Positions 26,887-32,452 of a stretch of 37,957 bases of DNA are shown here, piece after piece. The stretch is from the NCBI GenBank assembly GCA_900299245.1, contig OMJA01000079.1, forward strand, positions 1-37,957. The letters are read 5' to 3'. How positions within the stretch are numbered: position 1 is the first letter of the stretch; each line of letters starts with the position of its first letter. The notes below the pieces were generated by a model. That model had not been told where the DNA came from, did no database searches, and worked only from the letters and a program-made list of their open reading frames with translations. The stretch is from Nitrospiraceae bacterium. Its GTDB lineage: Bacteria; Nitrospirota; Nitrospiria; Nitrospirales; Nitrospiraceae. A program made the translations under genes and the position numbers.

Positions 26887-27008
26887 CCCATACTCATGCG
26901 GGGTTTTTGGAATTGAGTTCTTGTAGACGGGTCATAATGAACACCAGTGACGATGCCAACGGGAATGCGGACAGTGAAGTCAAAGATGAAGGGGGAATCG
27001 TGGTGGCC

Positions 27009-27054
27009 GTATACTGGTTTCTGGCTCACCTCCACAGGCAGGAGTATACTGGTT
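27009..27054. repeat. Pair of 11-bp direct repeats upstream of HEAT gene
   Basis: GTATACTGGTT occurs at 27009-27019 and again at 27044-27054, 35 bp apart start to start. Each copy begins with the palindrome GTATAC. The repeats lie 82-127 nt before the ATG of the exported HEAT-repeat gene and may be regulator sites. The rest of the 348-nt gap 26788-27135 holds the tRNA promoter and no gene I can support. Confidence 0.4.
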
Positions 27055-27135
27055 GAAGGAGCTGCCGTGCTCGCTTCGTCAGACTGTTGTGCTGTGCAGT
27101 TTGCTTCAGGCTTCCCGTCAGCAAGGAGGTGGTGC

Positions 27136-28218
27136 ATGTCCCGTTCTTTCTTGATCATCGCTTTCATTGTGATAGGGGCTCTGGGTGGATGGGTGTCGCC
27201 GGTCGGGGCCTATCGCGAGTATTTCACTCCGGAACAAAAGGCGCAGCTGGATAAGATTCAAGTCGTCCTGATCGAGTTGTTGGCCTTGACGGATAAAGGA
27301 GGGGTCGATAGCGGCCCCCTGACGTCGGTCGTTTCGCGCCGTCTGAGCGAAGTCGGGTATACAGTGGTGCAGGACCCCTCGAAAGCGTATGATGCAGTTG
27401 TCCGGGTCAAATGCGAGCAGCGTAAAACCTGGGAGGGAACGGCGTCGTCCGGCGGCGATAATGATTTACCCGATGCACCGTCTCGTCTCTGGAAAGGGCC
27501 GGCCTGTCAGCTGTCCTATGCCTTGGGCGGGATGAAGATCAAATGGCAGAAGGAGGTCCGGACTGATTTCGAGGACGCGTCGGCCGCAGCGTTGGCCGCT
27601 CAGGCTGGCGAGCCCGGCGCGTTTGCCATGGCCCGGCTGAAAGATCAGCTCGAAAAATATGAGTTTCCCTTGATTCTTGCCGCCGAGTGGGGGCATGCCG
27701 AGCGTTTGCTCAAGCTGCTGGACTCCTCTGACTCCAGCTTGTCCAGAAAGGTGAAAATCATTTCGCTTCTGGGTGAGATGCAGGCGGATGAAGCATTACC
27801 GAAGCTCAAACAGATACTTCAGGACCGGGATTTGGCCAAGCAGGCATTGGTGGCGATGGGGAACCTCGGGAAGGAAGGGATCCCGCTTCTTGTCGATATC
27901 ATGAACACGTCCGGGATGATCGATGTTCAGGCGGCAGCGGCGAAAGGATTGGGGCAGCTGGGCGGTATTCATGGCGATGCGTCCGTCGTCCTGCCCCTGC
28001 TGGCCAGATTGCAGGATCCGAAGACGGATTGGACCGTATTAACTGAAGTCGCCTGGGCATTGGGCAAGATTCCGGATAAGCGGTCGATTCAGCCCCTCTA
28101 TGATTTGGATAAGAAATTACAGGCGTTGCGCGATCCGGATAACCAGACGTTGAAACGATTGAAAGAGGCCGTCTTTTGGGCGATCAAACAGTGCGATACC
28201 TGGGATCAGTATAGCTAG
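27136..28218 (+). CDS. Exported HEAT-repeat protein
   Basis: A 360-residue protein with a Sec signal peptide ([21 protein letters not shown], cleavage after VGA). The N-terminal half (about 25-165) is an alpha/beta domain containing two Cys ([23 protein letters not shown]); the C-terminal half carries about four HEAT-like repeats ([20 protein letters not shown] onwards). The frame opens earlier, but AAGGAGG just upstream of the ATG at 27136, together with the signal peptide, fixes the start. Function unknown; the repeats suggest a periplasmic scaffold. It is followed by the sigma-54 activator, 71 nt away. Confidence 0.85.
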
Positions 28219-28289: not shown

Positions 28290-29864
28290 ATGTCGAACCA
28301 ACCCTCCCCCGAACGCTCGTCGAAACCAAGCGAAATCCTCGCCCGCATTACGCTTCAAATGGCGTCAAGCCTCGATCGTCAGGTTGTGTTGGACACCATC
28401 ACACAAGGTTTGGTGGAGGAGATTGATGCGGCCTTTGCTCGTATCTGGCTCTTAGGTCCCGGCGACCTGTGCGCCGACTGTTACAAAGCGGCAGATTGTC
28501 TGAACCGGAGCCGCTGTCTGCATCTTGAGGCCAGTGCCGGGCTTTATACCAATCTCACGGGAGAGTATCGACGCATTCCGCTCGGTGCCTTGAAGATCGG
28601 GAACATCGCGCAAGGCTCCGGCCCCATTTTCACGAACGACGTACTTGGCGATGACCGACTCCCGAACAAACAGTGGATGCAGGATAACGGGCTTCATTCC
28701 TTTGCCGGTTACCCGCTGAAGTTTCGCTCGGAATTGCTCGGCGTCATTGCGTTGTTCGGTCGGCGTCCGCTGAGCGAGGCGGAGTTCGAGCGATTGGCGG
28801 TCTTTGCCAACGAAGCGGCGATTGCGATCAAGAATGCTCAACTTTTTACGGAAGTCGAGCGGCTCAAGAATCGACTCCAGGCCGAAAATCTCTATCTCCG
28901 CGAAGAGATTAAGCTCGCACACAATTTTGAAGAGATTATCGGCGAGAGTCCGGGCATCAAGGCTGTGCTGCGGCACGTCGAGCAGGTCGCTCCTACTGAC
29001 TCGACGGTCCTGATTCACGGAGCCACAGGGACGGGGAAAGAGCTGATCGCCCGGGCCATTCACAATCTCAGCCTCCGCAAGGACCGCCCTCTAGTGCGAG
29101 TCAATTGCGGAGCAATTCCTGTGAACCTCGTAGAGAGTGAATTATTTGGACATGAGAAGGGTTCGTTTACCGGCGCGTTGCAACGTCGCATCGGACGATT
29201 CGAGCTGGCGGACGGTGGCACGATCTTCCTTGACGAGGTCGGTGAACTGCCGCTGGATGCGCAAGTGAAGCTGCTTCGCGTCTTGCAGGAGCGCGAGTTC
29301 GAGCGGATCGGGAGTGGTCTATCGACGAAGGTCAATGTGCGGGTGATCGCGGCAACGAACCGCAATTTGTTCGAGGCTGTCAAGGCCGGTCTGTTTCGGG
29401 CCGATCTCCTCTACCGCCTGAATGTCTTTCCGATCGAAGCCCCACCCCTGTCGGCTCGTGTTTCAGATATCCCTTTATTGGTTCACCATTTCCTCGAGAA
29501 ATATTCAAAGAAACTGTCCAAGGGGCTCGACGGGGTTTCTCAGGCAACCATGGACCGCCTCATGACCTATTCATGGCCCGGTAACATCCGTGAGTTAGAG
29601 AATGTCATCGAGCGGGCGACGATTCTCTCACACGGTCCCACTCTTGAGATTGATGACGCGCTTCTCCATCCCACCGTCCGATCTTCGTTACAGCAGGAGG
29701 AAACGATGGAAGCCGTCGAGCGGGCCCATATCCTGCGTGTTCTTCAGGACGTGAGTTGGGTCGTCGAAGGAAAGCAGGGTGCAGCGACTCGGTTGGATCT
29801 CCATCCCAATACCCTCCGCTCACGCATGCAGAAGCTCGGGATTAAGAAGCCTCGTCTCTCATAA
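28290..29864 (+). CDS. Sigma-54-dependent activator with 4-Cys GAF domain
   Basis: A 524-residue transcription activator. The N-terminal GAF domain (about 17-185) carries Cys61, 64, 70 and 76 (C-x2-C-x5-C-x5-C), suited to an Fe-S cluster or metal. A linker helix follows, then the AAA+ domain (about 214-440) with Walker A GATGTGKE (Lys250), the sigma-54 contact loop GSFTGA (291-296; Ser replaces the usual Ala of GAFTGA) and Walker B TIFLDE (Asp315/Glu316). A C-terminal Fis-type helix-turn-helix ends the protein ([21 protein letters not shown]). No receiver domain, so it is a one-component sensor of the FhlA/NorR kind. The frame opens with TTG at 28266; ATG 28290 has GGGAG at 8 nt. Probable target: the operon beginning at 30104. 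Confidence 0.94.
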
Positions 29865-29894
29865 ACGCATAGATTCTTCCCTGACGCACACGGG

Positions 29895-29914
29895 ATATCG
29901 TGGCGCTACGATAT
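29895..29914. promoter_or_regulatory. 20-bp palindrome, putative activator binding site (UAS)
   Basis: ATATCGT-GGCGCT-ACGATAT has perfect 7-bp arms around a 6-nt centre (itself GCGC). It lies 31 nt after the activator stop and 108 bp before the -24 element at 30022, the usual distance for an enhancer site of a sigma-54 activator acting by DNA looping. No T-run follows, so a terminator role is less likely. Confidence 0.55.
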
Positions 29915-30020
29915 GTCGTAGGAGCGGGCGGTCGCCGAGCTGAACGCGGCAGTCGTAGAACATCATTCAACCTGTTGATTGCGTTCGTTTCTCATCTCCC
30001 ATCAGGCCTGGCATCCTTTC

Positions 30021-30036
30021 CGGCATTCGACTTGCT
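30021..30036 (+). promoter_or_regulatory. Sigma-54 (-24/-12) promoter of dsrE-like operon
   Basis: CGGCAT...TTGCT: GG at 30022-30023 and GC at 30034-30035 with exactly 10 nt between, close to the consensus TGGCAC-N5-TTGCA. The start should be near 30047, about 57 nt before the ATG at 30104. Confidence 0.6.
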
Positions 30037-30103
30037 GAAGTATCTCACGGCGATGGCCATCGCATGACGAGATCACAGTCCTCATTCTGTTGAAGGAGAA
30101 TGT

Positions 30104-30478
30104 ATGAAAACTGCCATCATTATTTTGTCTGATCCGAAGAGTGGTTCCGAAGAAGGACTGGGGCGAGTCTTTAATGCGCTGGCCCTGGCGTCCGAATGTA
30201 AACAGAAGGGCGATGAAGTCGTGGTTGTGTTTAATGGCGCCGGCACGCGCTGGCCGGCCGAATTGACCAAACTCTCGCATCCGGCCAACGGCCTCTACAA
30301 CGCCGTGCGCGATGTTGTGCAAGGTGCCTCATGCGGTTGCGCGGAGGTCTTCGGAGCGACGGAAAGCGTCAAGGCCTGCGGCGTTCCAATTGTGAAGGAT
30401 TATGCGTTATCCGGGACAGCCGGTCTCTTAAGCCTGCGGCGATACATGGCGGAGGGATGGCAGACGATCGTGTTTTGA
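30104..30478 (+). CDS. DsrE/DsrF-like family protein
   Basis: A 124-residue cytoplasmic protein with the alternating beta/alpha pattern of the DsrE fold: KTAIIILSDPKSG, then EGLGRVFNALALASECKQKG, DEVVVVFNGAGTRW and a C-terminal GLLSLRRYMAEGWQTIVF. Relatives carry or relay sulfur, or act as small-molecule binders. Cys77, Cys79 (ASCGCAEVFG) and Cys92 sit where DsrE-type proteins often have reactive Cys, but activity is unproven. AAGGAG lies just upstream of the ATG. It is the first gene after the sigma-54 promoter. Confidence 0.85.
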   Translation: MKTAIIILSDPKSGSEEGLGRVFNALALASECKQKGDEVVVVFNGAGTRWPAELTKLSHPANGLYNAVRDVVQGASCGCAEVFGATESVKACGVPIVKDYALSGTAGLLSLRRYMAEGWQTIVF

Positions 30479-30549: not shown

Positions 30550-31149
30550 ATGGCCACGAAGTATCTCGATCTGATGTTTACGGATGCGGTGGGTCGTGCG
30601 CAGACACGCTATTACGGGCAGGCGGGTAAGATTGCCGGGTCTCCGGAGCGCGATCTGTTAGGCCCGGGAGAGATTGAATTCATTACGATGCAGGACAGCT
30701 TCTATCTCGGGTCGATCAGCGAAAGCGGATGGCCCTATATCCAGCATCGCGGCGGGCCTTCCGGATTCTTGCGGGTGATTGGCAATTCGACCTTGGCGTT
30801 TGCCGACTATAAGGGCAATCGGCAGCTGTTGAGTACGGGCAACCTGTCGGTCAACGATCGGGTCGCACTGTTTCTCATGAACTACACGCACCGCGAACGA
30901 CTAAAAATTCTGGGCCATGCTCGCATCGAAGATGTCCGTGAGCGTCCTGAATTGATCGAACGATTCGCGGATCCGACTATGCGGACGAGCGTGGAACGGG
31001 TGGTCTTCATTGACGTCGTCTCATTCGATTGGAACTGTCCGAAGTACATTACGCCACGCTATTCTGTGAAAGAAGTGGAGGAGCTGGCGTCGTCGCTGAG
31101 AACGCGGATTGCCGAGCTTGAAGCTGCGCTGCGTGCTGTGAAATCGTAA
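30550..31149 (+). CDS. Pyridoxamine 5'-phosphate oxidase-family (FMN-binding) protein
   Basis: A 199-residue cytoplasmic split-barrel protein. FITMQDSFYLGSISESGWPYIQHRGGPSG.. is the typical flavin-binding start of the PNPOx-like family, and LAFADYKGNRQLLSTGNL supplies the phosphate-binding Arg/Asn. The C-terminus ends in a short coiled coil (VEELASSLRTRIAELEAALR), suited to dimerisation. Such proteins may be flavin reductases or F420/FMN enzymes; true pyridoxal synthesis is unlikely given the context. GGAGG sits 5 nt before the ATG. Middle gene of the sigma-54 operon. Confidence 0.88.
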   Translation: MATKYLDLMFTDAVGRAQTRYYGQAGKIAGSPERDLLGPGEIEFITMQDSFYLGSISESGWPYIQHRGGPSGFLRVIGNSTLAFADYKGNRQLLSTGNLSVNDRVALFLMNYTHRERLKILGHARIEDVRERPELIERFADPTMRTSVERVVFIDVVSFDWNCPKYITPRYSVKEVEELASSLRTRIAELEAALRAVKS

Positions 31150-31210
31150 GCAGGTTTGATACAACCCGGTCACGTGCGGCTGACCGTTGAACGAGAAGGA
31201 GGGAGAGACG

Positions 31211-32452
31211 ATGACGGATCTGTCGAGACGACGATTTCTGCAACTGTCGGCTATGACCGGCGGCGCGTTGCTGGCCAGCGATCTGGTCGAACGGCTTCTG
31301 GACCGTAGTGGACAGGCAACCGCAGCTGCCGGCGATCCTATCAGGATCGGCATGCTCGATCCGCTGTCGAGTCCGTATAAAACGTCTTCGATCCATGATG
31401 TCCATGGCGCGAATGTGGCCGTGGACCTTTTCAATAAGCGCGGCGGTGTGCTGGGGCGTCCGGTGATGATTCTTGAAGCCGATGACGCTTCGAATCCTGA
31501 GCAGGCGCTGAAAGCTGCGACGAAGTTTATCAAGGAGGACCGCGTCGACGCACTGATGGGGACGTTCAACGGCGATTGTGCGTTGACGGTCAGCGAACTG
31601 GCTCAACGGGAAAACAAGCTGTTTATGGTAACCGGTTCCTATCTCCCCGAGCTGACCGGCGTCGCCTGTAATTCCCAGACATTCGTGTTTATGCCCCATG
31701 CCCGAATGCTGGCGCAGGCAGTGGTTCCACACCTCGTGAAGGCCTACGGTACCCGCTGGTACATGATCACCACGAGTTCGTTGGACGGTAAGGCAGCCGC
31801 GCAGGCGGTGGTGGAGGCGGCCGAGGCGCATAAAGTAGAGGTTGTCGGCGAAGCGTTGATCCCGTTCGGGTCGACGGAATTTCTGTCGGCGTTGACGGCG
31901 GCGAAAGCCAAGGAACCGACGGCGATCATCTGCAATCTGTACGGATGGGATCTTGTGCATGCGCTCAAGGGATATGGGAAGCTCGAACTGGCGAAGGACA
32001 AGATTGGTATCGGCGGTCTTATCAGCGGCGAGCAGATCGGCCGGCCGCTGGGTTACGCGAATAATGCCGGAATCTGGGGCTTGATCTGGGATCCAAAAAT
32101 CAACACCGAGGGTTCGAGACGATTTATCCAAGGCGTCATCGATAAGTACAATCATACCCCGACGTCCCGCTGCTACTTGGGCTATGCCGCGATGACGCAG
32201 TTGCTCGAAGCGATCCAGCGTGCCGGCTCAACCGACACGGCCGCATTGATCAAGGCATTGGAAGGGCATGAGTTCGACGGCTTGAAGGAGGGACGATCGG
32301 TCTTTCGCGCAGCGGATCACCAACATGTCCAGGATGTATTGGTGGGGGAAGCGTTTGGAAAGGAATTGGGGTTAGGACATTTTAAGATACTGGCGACGGT
32401 GTCCGGTTCCGCCAATTCCGGTGCCGTCGAACAGCACTCGTGCAAACAGTAA
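31211..32452 (+). CDS. Tat-exported ABC-type solute-binding protein (AmiC/UrtA-like)
   Basis: A 413-residue periplasmic type I binding protein of the branched-chain/amide/urea class. The N-terminus carries a twin-arginine signal, SRRRFLQ at residues 5-11, followed by SAMTGGALLASD. The mature protein shows the two-lobed Leu/Ile/Val-type fold: IRIGMLDPLSSPY, NKRGGVLGRPVMILEADD, ALMGTFNGDCALTVSEL. The ligand is not known; UrtA and AmiC relatives bind urea or amides. No permease or ATPase gene follows. The frame opens at a TTG 31187, but GGAGG before ATG 31211 gives the start. Third gene of the sigma-54 operon, 61 nt after the FMN gene. Confidence 0.9.
   Translation: MTDLSRRRFLQLSAMTGGALLASDLVERLLDRSGQATAAAGDPIRIGMLDPLSSPYKTSSIHDVHGANVAVDLFNKRGGVLGRPVMILEADDASNPEQALKAATKFIKEDRVDALMGTFNGDCALTVSELAQRENKLFMVTGSYLPELTGVACNSQTFVFMPHARMLAQAVVPHLVKAYGTRWYMITTSSLDGKAAAQAVVEAAEAHKVEVVGEALIPFGSTEFLSALTAAKAKEPTAIICNLYGWDLVHALKGYGKLELAKDKIGIGGLISGEQIGRPLGYANNAGIWGLIWDPKINTEGSRRFIQGVIDKYNHTPTSRCYLGYAAMTQLLEAIQRAGSTDTAALIKALEGHEFDGLKEGRSVFRAADHQHVQDVLVGEAFGKELGLGHFKILATVSGSANSGAVEQHSCKQ

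What the first reader, a model, noticed from the sequence alone, without database searches (positions are those of the whole stretch)
29895..30036. Enhancer palindrome and -24/-12 promoter in the textbook arrangement
ATATCGT-GGCGCT-ACGATAT lies 108 bp before a CGGCAT-N5-TTGCT element, with a sigma-54 activator gene immediately upstream. The arrangement allows a specific prediction of the regulator-site-target set.
Basis: partly seen in the sequence, partly recalled or inferred. Interest (0 to 1): 0.55.

Follow-up and report, generated by a model that had tools for sequence, protein, structure and literature searches.

The report
Conserved sigma-54 switch in Nitrospira
A bacterial on-switch made of an activator gene, two tandem binding sites and a sigma-54 promoter is real and strongly conserved in Nitrospira relatives; it is an ordinary kind of switch whose target, signal and purpose have not been shown experimentally.

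Summary
The palindrome is at 29895-29914 and a -24/-12 element at 30020-30036, between a GAF/sigma-54-activator gene and a DsrE-like/PPOX/ABC operon. In one sequence the palindrome alone is unremarkable (367 of 2000 shuffles hold one as good). Comparison makes the case: 27 of 79 same-genus genomes carry a close activator orthologue, and all 27 have the site and a GG-N10-GC promoter right after the gene, 128-130 bp apart. At 2 mismatches or fewer the double site is in none of the other 52.

One correction: the enhancer is two tandem 16-bp inverted repeats, CYACGA-N-AT-N-TCGTRG (29888-29903 and 29906-29921), 18 bp centre to centre.

Related activators (about 45%) stand divergent from overlapping gene sets and have the same ACGA-N4-TCGT half-sites. 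Where the activator is missing, the operon can have an ABATE-CGNR regulator instead and no such sites. This is a new member of a known kind (group 3 enhancer-binding protein with its own enhancer). The signal is unknown; a conserved four-cysteine loop in the GAF domain suggests metal or redox sensing (inferred).

The parts
28290..29864 (+). Sigma-54-dependent activator: GAF domain, AAA+ sigma-54 interaction domain (GSFTGA loop), Fis-type HTH. The ORF opens at TTG 28266; ATG 28290 fits where similarity to relatives begins.
   Evidence: Pfam GAF 5.1e-13, Sigma54_activat 9.1e-71, HTH_8 1.4e-4; GSFTGA and Cys69/72/78/84; relatives align from about residue 9-14.
29888..29903 (.). Left enhancer site, imperfect inverted repeat ACACGG-GATA-TCGTGG
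   Evidence: Consensus CYACGA-N4-TCGTRG from 27 loci; position.
29906..29921 (.). Right enhancer site, perfect inverted repeat CTACGA-TATG-TCGTAG
   Evidence: Only exact match to CYACGANNNNTCGTRG in the own genome; position.
29895..29914 (.).
   Evidence: re-parsed.
29968..29980 (-). Possible IHF site (AATCAACAGGTTG on the minus strand); uncertain
   Evidence: Perfect WATCAANNNNTTR (consensus recalled) in the window, but relatives keep it poorly: mean 2.26 mismatches over 27 loci against 2.57 in shuffles.
30020..30036 (+). -24/-12 sigma-54 promoter element; predicted start about 30047
   Evidence: GG, A and TTGC 27 of 27 in the aligned loci.
30104..30478 (+). First gene of the predicted target operon, DsrE-like protein, 124 aa
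   Evidence: Pfam DsrE over its full length but below cut-off, E 0.0018, 18.9 bits against 22.7; structure model poor, pLDDT 60. Behind the promoter in most relatives.
30550..31149 (+). PPOX-type (pyridoxamine 5'-phosphate oxidase-like) flavoprotein, probably same operon
   Evidence: Pfam PNPOx_N 8.9e-9; co-linear in relatives.
31187..32452 (+). ABC-transporter substrate-binding protein, possibly same operon
   Evidence: Pfam Peripla_BP_6 1.2e-69; found behind PPOX only in some relatives.

Best explanation
This is a dedicated sigma-54 switch. The activator encoded at 28290-29864 binds as dimers to two adjacent 16-bp sites (29888-29903, 29906-29921). When its GAF domain receives a signal, the protein assembles on the DNA, which loops so that the AAA+ ring touches sigma-54 RNA polymerase waiting at 30020-30036. 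ATP hydrolysis then opens the promoter and the DsrE-PPOX(-ABC) operon is transcribed from about 30047. Shown at sequence level: the sites, their conserved spacing, and co-inheritance with the activator. Inferred: binding, activation and start. Guess: the signal is a redox or reactive compound sensed through a four-cysteine loop, and the operon is a detoxification or stress module.
For: Activator domains. rpoN present in the same assembly. The double-site pattern is found in 28 of 79 genus genomes at up to 3 mismatches, one per genome (reversed-pattern control: 3 of 79); 27 of the 28 lie directly after the activator gene, and the 28th (3 mismatches, G024) has neither activator nor promoter. Activator homologues at E <= 1e-150 are in 28 of 79: the same 27 plus a 55% homologue, G085. 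Co-occurrence Fisher p = 2.7e-20, not corrected for relatedness. Spacing 130 bp in 18, 129 in 8, 128 in 1 of 27. Arms near-invariant while three of the positions inside the sites have 0.14-0.18 bits. Sister activators (44-46%) carry ACGA-N4-TCGT between themselves and the divergent operon in 10 of 10 same-genus loci examined, two or more exact copies in 9. Nine of 9 DsrE operons with an ABATE-CGNR regulator instead have neither ACGA-N4-TCGT nor a strict -24/-12 match in the 1.1 kb upstream.
Against: No experiment; all 27 loci are from one genus and are not independent. The window's own copy is among the weaker ones: left arm ACACGG, and C where 24 of 27 have T before the GG. In L142, L149 and L160 the next genes are MOSC and hydrolase genes, not DsrE, and in L164/L165 an EF-hand gene, so the target is not fixed. 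G025 has an in-frame TAG in its DsrE gene and G029 a truncated one. The signal and the operon's function are not shown.
Confidence: 0.9

Rival explanations
1. The inverted repeats act as RNA: hairpins that terminate or stabilise the activator's transcript.
For: They begin 23 bp after the activator's stop codon, and TCGTGG-N2-CCACGA could pair.
Against: No T run follows. In the sister class the same half-sites lie between divergent genes, upstream of both. The fixed 128-130 bp distance to the promoter is not needed by a terminator.
Confidence: 0.04
2. Another regulator, not the neighbouring activator, binds the sites.
For: No binding data; the regulator next to an operon is not always the one that acts.
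Against: At 2 mismatches or fewer the double site is in no genome lacking the activator. Of three loci of another family with 44-46% homologues, two (L184, L185) also have a CYACGA-N4-TCGTRG-like site near the activator start; the third (L186) has none.
Confidence: 0.05
3. Chance palindrome and chance -24/-12 match.
For: Single-sequence statistics are weak.
Against: Conserved in 27 of 27 orthologous loci with drifting spacer bases.
Confidence: 0.01

Closest known systems
Group 3 bacterial enhancer-binding proteins (NorR, NifA, FhlA)
   Same: GAF regulatory domain, AAA+ domain with a GAFTGA-type loop, HTH; pairs of DNA-binding domains on one or more upstream sites (group table and UAS passage seen in PMC7175178; NorR's three sites seen there only as a reference title).
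   Different: Scores well below the NCBIfam cut-offs for FhlA, NifA and NorR; four-cysteine insertion in the GAF domain; its site is not the TGT/ACA type that PMC6615313 passages ascribe to FhlA and NifA.
One-component sigma-54 regulons reconstructed by comparative genomics in Clostridiales and Desulfovibrio (PMC6615313, PMC4641369; passages seen)
   Same: Activator beside its target, often multiple sites, mostly 100-250 bp upstream, GSFTGA variants accepted.
   Different: Those main texts hold no TCGT or ACGA string; their motif figures and supplements were not seen, so an identical motif is not excluded.
ABATE-CGNR regulators (PF07336/PF11706; PMC2954205 passages)
   Same: Stands beside the same DsrE-PPOX operon in other genomes of the genus.
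   Different: Unrelated protein, divergent orientation, no enhancer or strict -24/-12 found there.

Membership tests
Group 3 bacterial enhancer-binding protein | GAF + sigma-54 AAA+ + Fis-type HTH | tested here: met
   HTH_8 just at its cut-off (22 of 22 bits).
Group 3 bacterial enhancer-binding protein | GAFTGA or a working variant | tested here: met
   G[SA]FTGA in all 37 aligned activators.
Group 3 bacterial enhancer-binding protein | Binds an upstream site and activates sigma-54 polymerase | not testable with these tools
   Only conservation and co-occurrence.
Sigma-54 promoter | GG and GC 10 bases apart, conserved in relatives | tested here: met
   27 of 27.
Sigma-54 promoter | Transcription start about 12 bases after GC | not testable with these tools
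   Needs start mapping.
Sigma-54 promoter | Organism encodes RpoN | tested here: met
   PF04552 1.1e-57 in G000.
NorR / NifA / FhlA equivalogs | Score above NCBIfam curated cut-off | tested here: not met
   363.8 of 476; 385.8 of 528.85; 410.7 of 830.
DsrE family (first target gene) | Pfam DsrE gathering score | tested here: inconclusive
   18.9 bits against 22.7, but residues 1-124 over profile 1-116; 'DsrE-like' is therefore tentative.

The most novel reading that the evidence does not exclude
The activator, double enhancer and promoter form a portable control cassette for a Nitrospira stress module. It keeps a fixed geometry while the genes behind it change (DsrE-PPOX, or MOSC-isochorismatase-hydrolase, or others), and at one chromosomal position it is exchanged for an unrelated ABATE-CGNR regulator. 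Its GAF domain would sense a reactive or redox signal through a four-cysteine centre; one paper search for such a centre in this protein group returned nothing, and cysteine motifs of the relatives VnfA/AnfA are recalled, not tested.
Probability: 0.3. Interest if true: 0.5.

Novelty: new member of a known kind. Interest (0 to 1): 0.35.

Why it matters
It gives a concrete, testable regulator-site-promoter set in a genus of nitrite oxidisers. The one Nitrospira genome paper I looked into (PMC5767232, passages) mentions sigma-54 only in connection with flagella. The natural exchange of two unrelated regulators at the same operon is a useful comparison for finding the shared signal. As a mechanism it is standard.

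Tried and rejected
Single 20-bp palindrome as the enhancer: rejected, because conserved columns show two 16-bp repeats. IHF site: perfect in the window, weak in relatives, left open. Textbook consensus scan for -24/-12: no excess over chance, so not used as evidence. Genome-collection scan with the activator: its best 80 rows held homologues of 61% identity or less and no close orthologue; used only for organism names. DsrE structure model too poor (pLDDT 60), so no fold search was made with it; the sequence search of solved structures found nothing convincing. GAF model (pLDDT 85): the fold search gives many GAF domains, none informative about the ligand. First protein extraction missed 25 loci through too strict a filter and was redone. 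Paper searches for this system, for the cysteine-type sensor and for the cargo set found no description of it in their listings; the library is open-licence only.

Full report
What is there. Upstream is a GAF/AAA+/HTH sigma-54 activator; downstream are a DsrE-like gene, a PPOX-type flavoprotein and an ABC substrate-binding protein (DsrE below its cut-off). RpoN is encoded elsewhere in the assembly. The assembly belongs to a genus that includes two records titled 'Nitrospira sp.': the MnmA matches in the genomes of L055 and L036 have the same contig number, coordinates and scores as those in the same-genus genomes G010 and G027 (titles). That identification is an inference.

Chance. Taken alone neither element is striking: 367 of 2000 shuffles and 27 of 158 tiles contain an equally good inverted repeat, and the -24/-12 consensus is not enriched in the window.

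Comparison. Of 59 genomes in the first search (own included), 12 besides the window gave a strong orthologue, 75-86% identical. In the genus search 28 of 79 genomes matched at E <= 1e-150: 27 close orthologues, window included (the others 73-86% identical, two of them partial, G067 and G033), and one 55% homologue, G085. The double-site pattern at up to 3 mismatches was found in 28 of 79 genomes, once each, with 3 of 79 for the reversed pattern. Twenty-seven of these are the close-orthologue genomes. The other, G024, has 3 mismatches, no activator and no promoter, and was dropped before the column counts. All 27 have GG[CT]A-N8-GC downstream, with 130, 129 or 128 bp from site centre to -12 in 18, 8 and 1. 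The pattern was tuned on 13 loci seen first, the window among them, so the other 14 are the independent test. G085 has no such site in the fetched stretch and its recognition helix differs.

The real enhancer. Column counts over 27 loci give C[CT]ACGA-N-AT-N-TCGT[AG]G twice, with a 2-bp spacer. The core letters are nearly fixed (for example T, C and T of the left TCGT 27 of 27; A, C and A of the right ACGA 27 of 27), while the outer two of the right site's inner four bases, and the first of the left's, carry 0.14-0.18 bits. The left outer arm is the weakest (A 19 of 27). In the window the right repeat is perfect and the left imperfect.

Wider family. Sister activators, 44-46% identical, stand divergent from CMD-(isochorismatase)-DsrE-PPOX-ABC operons, except L183, where no close DsrE-PPOX copy lies in the fetched stretch (CMD by Pfam). 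Ten such same-genus loci were examined (L179-L183, L192, L194, L196, L197, L204): all have ACGA-N4-TCGT between the divergent genes, nine with two or more exact copies and L204 with one (L183 read by eye). A GGCA-N6-YTGC promoter stands on the operon side in eight (L180, L181, L182, L192, L194, L196, L197, L204), a GGTA form in L179, and a GGCA form can be read by eye in L183. By my arithmetic on those coordinates the pair-to-promoter distance is about 95-97 bp in L192, L194, L196, L197 and L204. In three loci from another family (L184-L186) one had an exact site, one a one-mismatch site and one none.

Regulator exchange. Fifteen further DsrE loci lacking the close activator were chosen from the DsrE search and fetched; some other hits were not fetched. 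Nine have a divergent ABATE-CGNR gene (two of them tested by Pfam; the rest by similarity), five a sister activator, and one is cut by a contig end. None of the nine shows ACGA-N4-TCGT or a strict -24/-12 in 1.1 kb upstream. In seven of the nine the same HEAT-repeat gene lies on the left, as it does in the window and in 5 of the 26 other activator loci, so the exchange appears to have happened in place.

Cargo. Behind the conserved promoter most loci have DsrE-PPOX. L142, L149 and L160 have MOSC and alpha/beta-hydrolase genes, with an isochorismatase-like gene in the first two. L143 has a hydrolase and L162 a YHS-domain gene inserted before DsrE. L164 and L165 have an EF-hand protein. This mix suggests detoxification or stress, but that is inference from family names.

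Sensor. The GAF domain has four cysteines (69, 72, 78, 84) in 26 of 26 orthologues that cover the site. Of the ten more distant homologues aligned, nine cover the site and keep the first two; four keep all four. In the model they lie in the loop between two GAF strands. A metal or redox centre is a reasonable guess, untested.

Literature. A review and two regulon papers seen as passages describe the same architecture as normal. Searches for this Nitrospira system returned nothing on it in their listings.

Noticed in passing
window 30050-30063: Perfect palindrome GCGATGGCCATCGC just after the predicted start; also perfect in the G025 and G033 loci, partly kept in others. Could be a 5' hairpin or an operator.
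   Followed up: no
L190, L191, L193, L198-L203: The DsrE-PPOX operon has a divergent ABATE-CGNR regulator instead of the sigma-54 activator, in seven of the nine next to the same HEAT-repeat gene as in the window.
   Followed up: partly
L143 (DsrE) and L154 (DsrE/PPOX): The target gene is broken in two genomes: an in-frame stop in G025 and a truncated DsrE-PPOX in G029; the upstream sites are intact.
   Followed up: no
L187 around 5423: A 48% homologue without the four-cysteine loop, with a similar HTH, has CTACGA and TCGTAG half-sites about 107 bp after its gene, a possible parallel arrangement.
   Followed up: no
window 26947-28218: HEAT-repeat protein gene directly upstream of the activator on the same strand; found beside the operon with either regulator.
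   Followed up: partly
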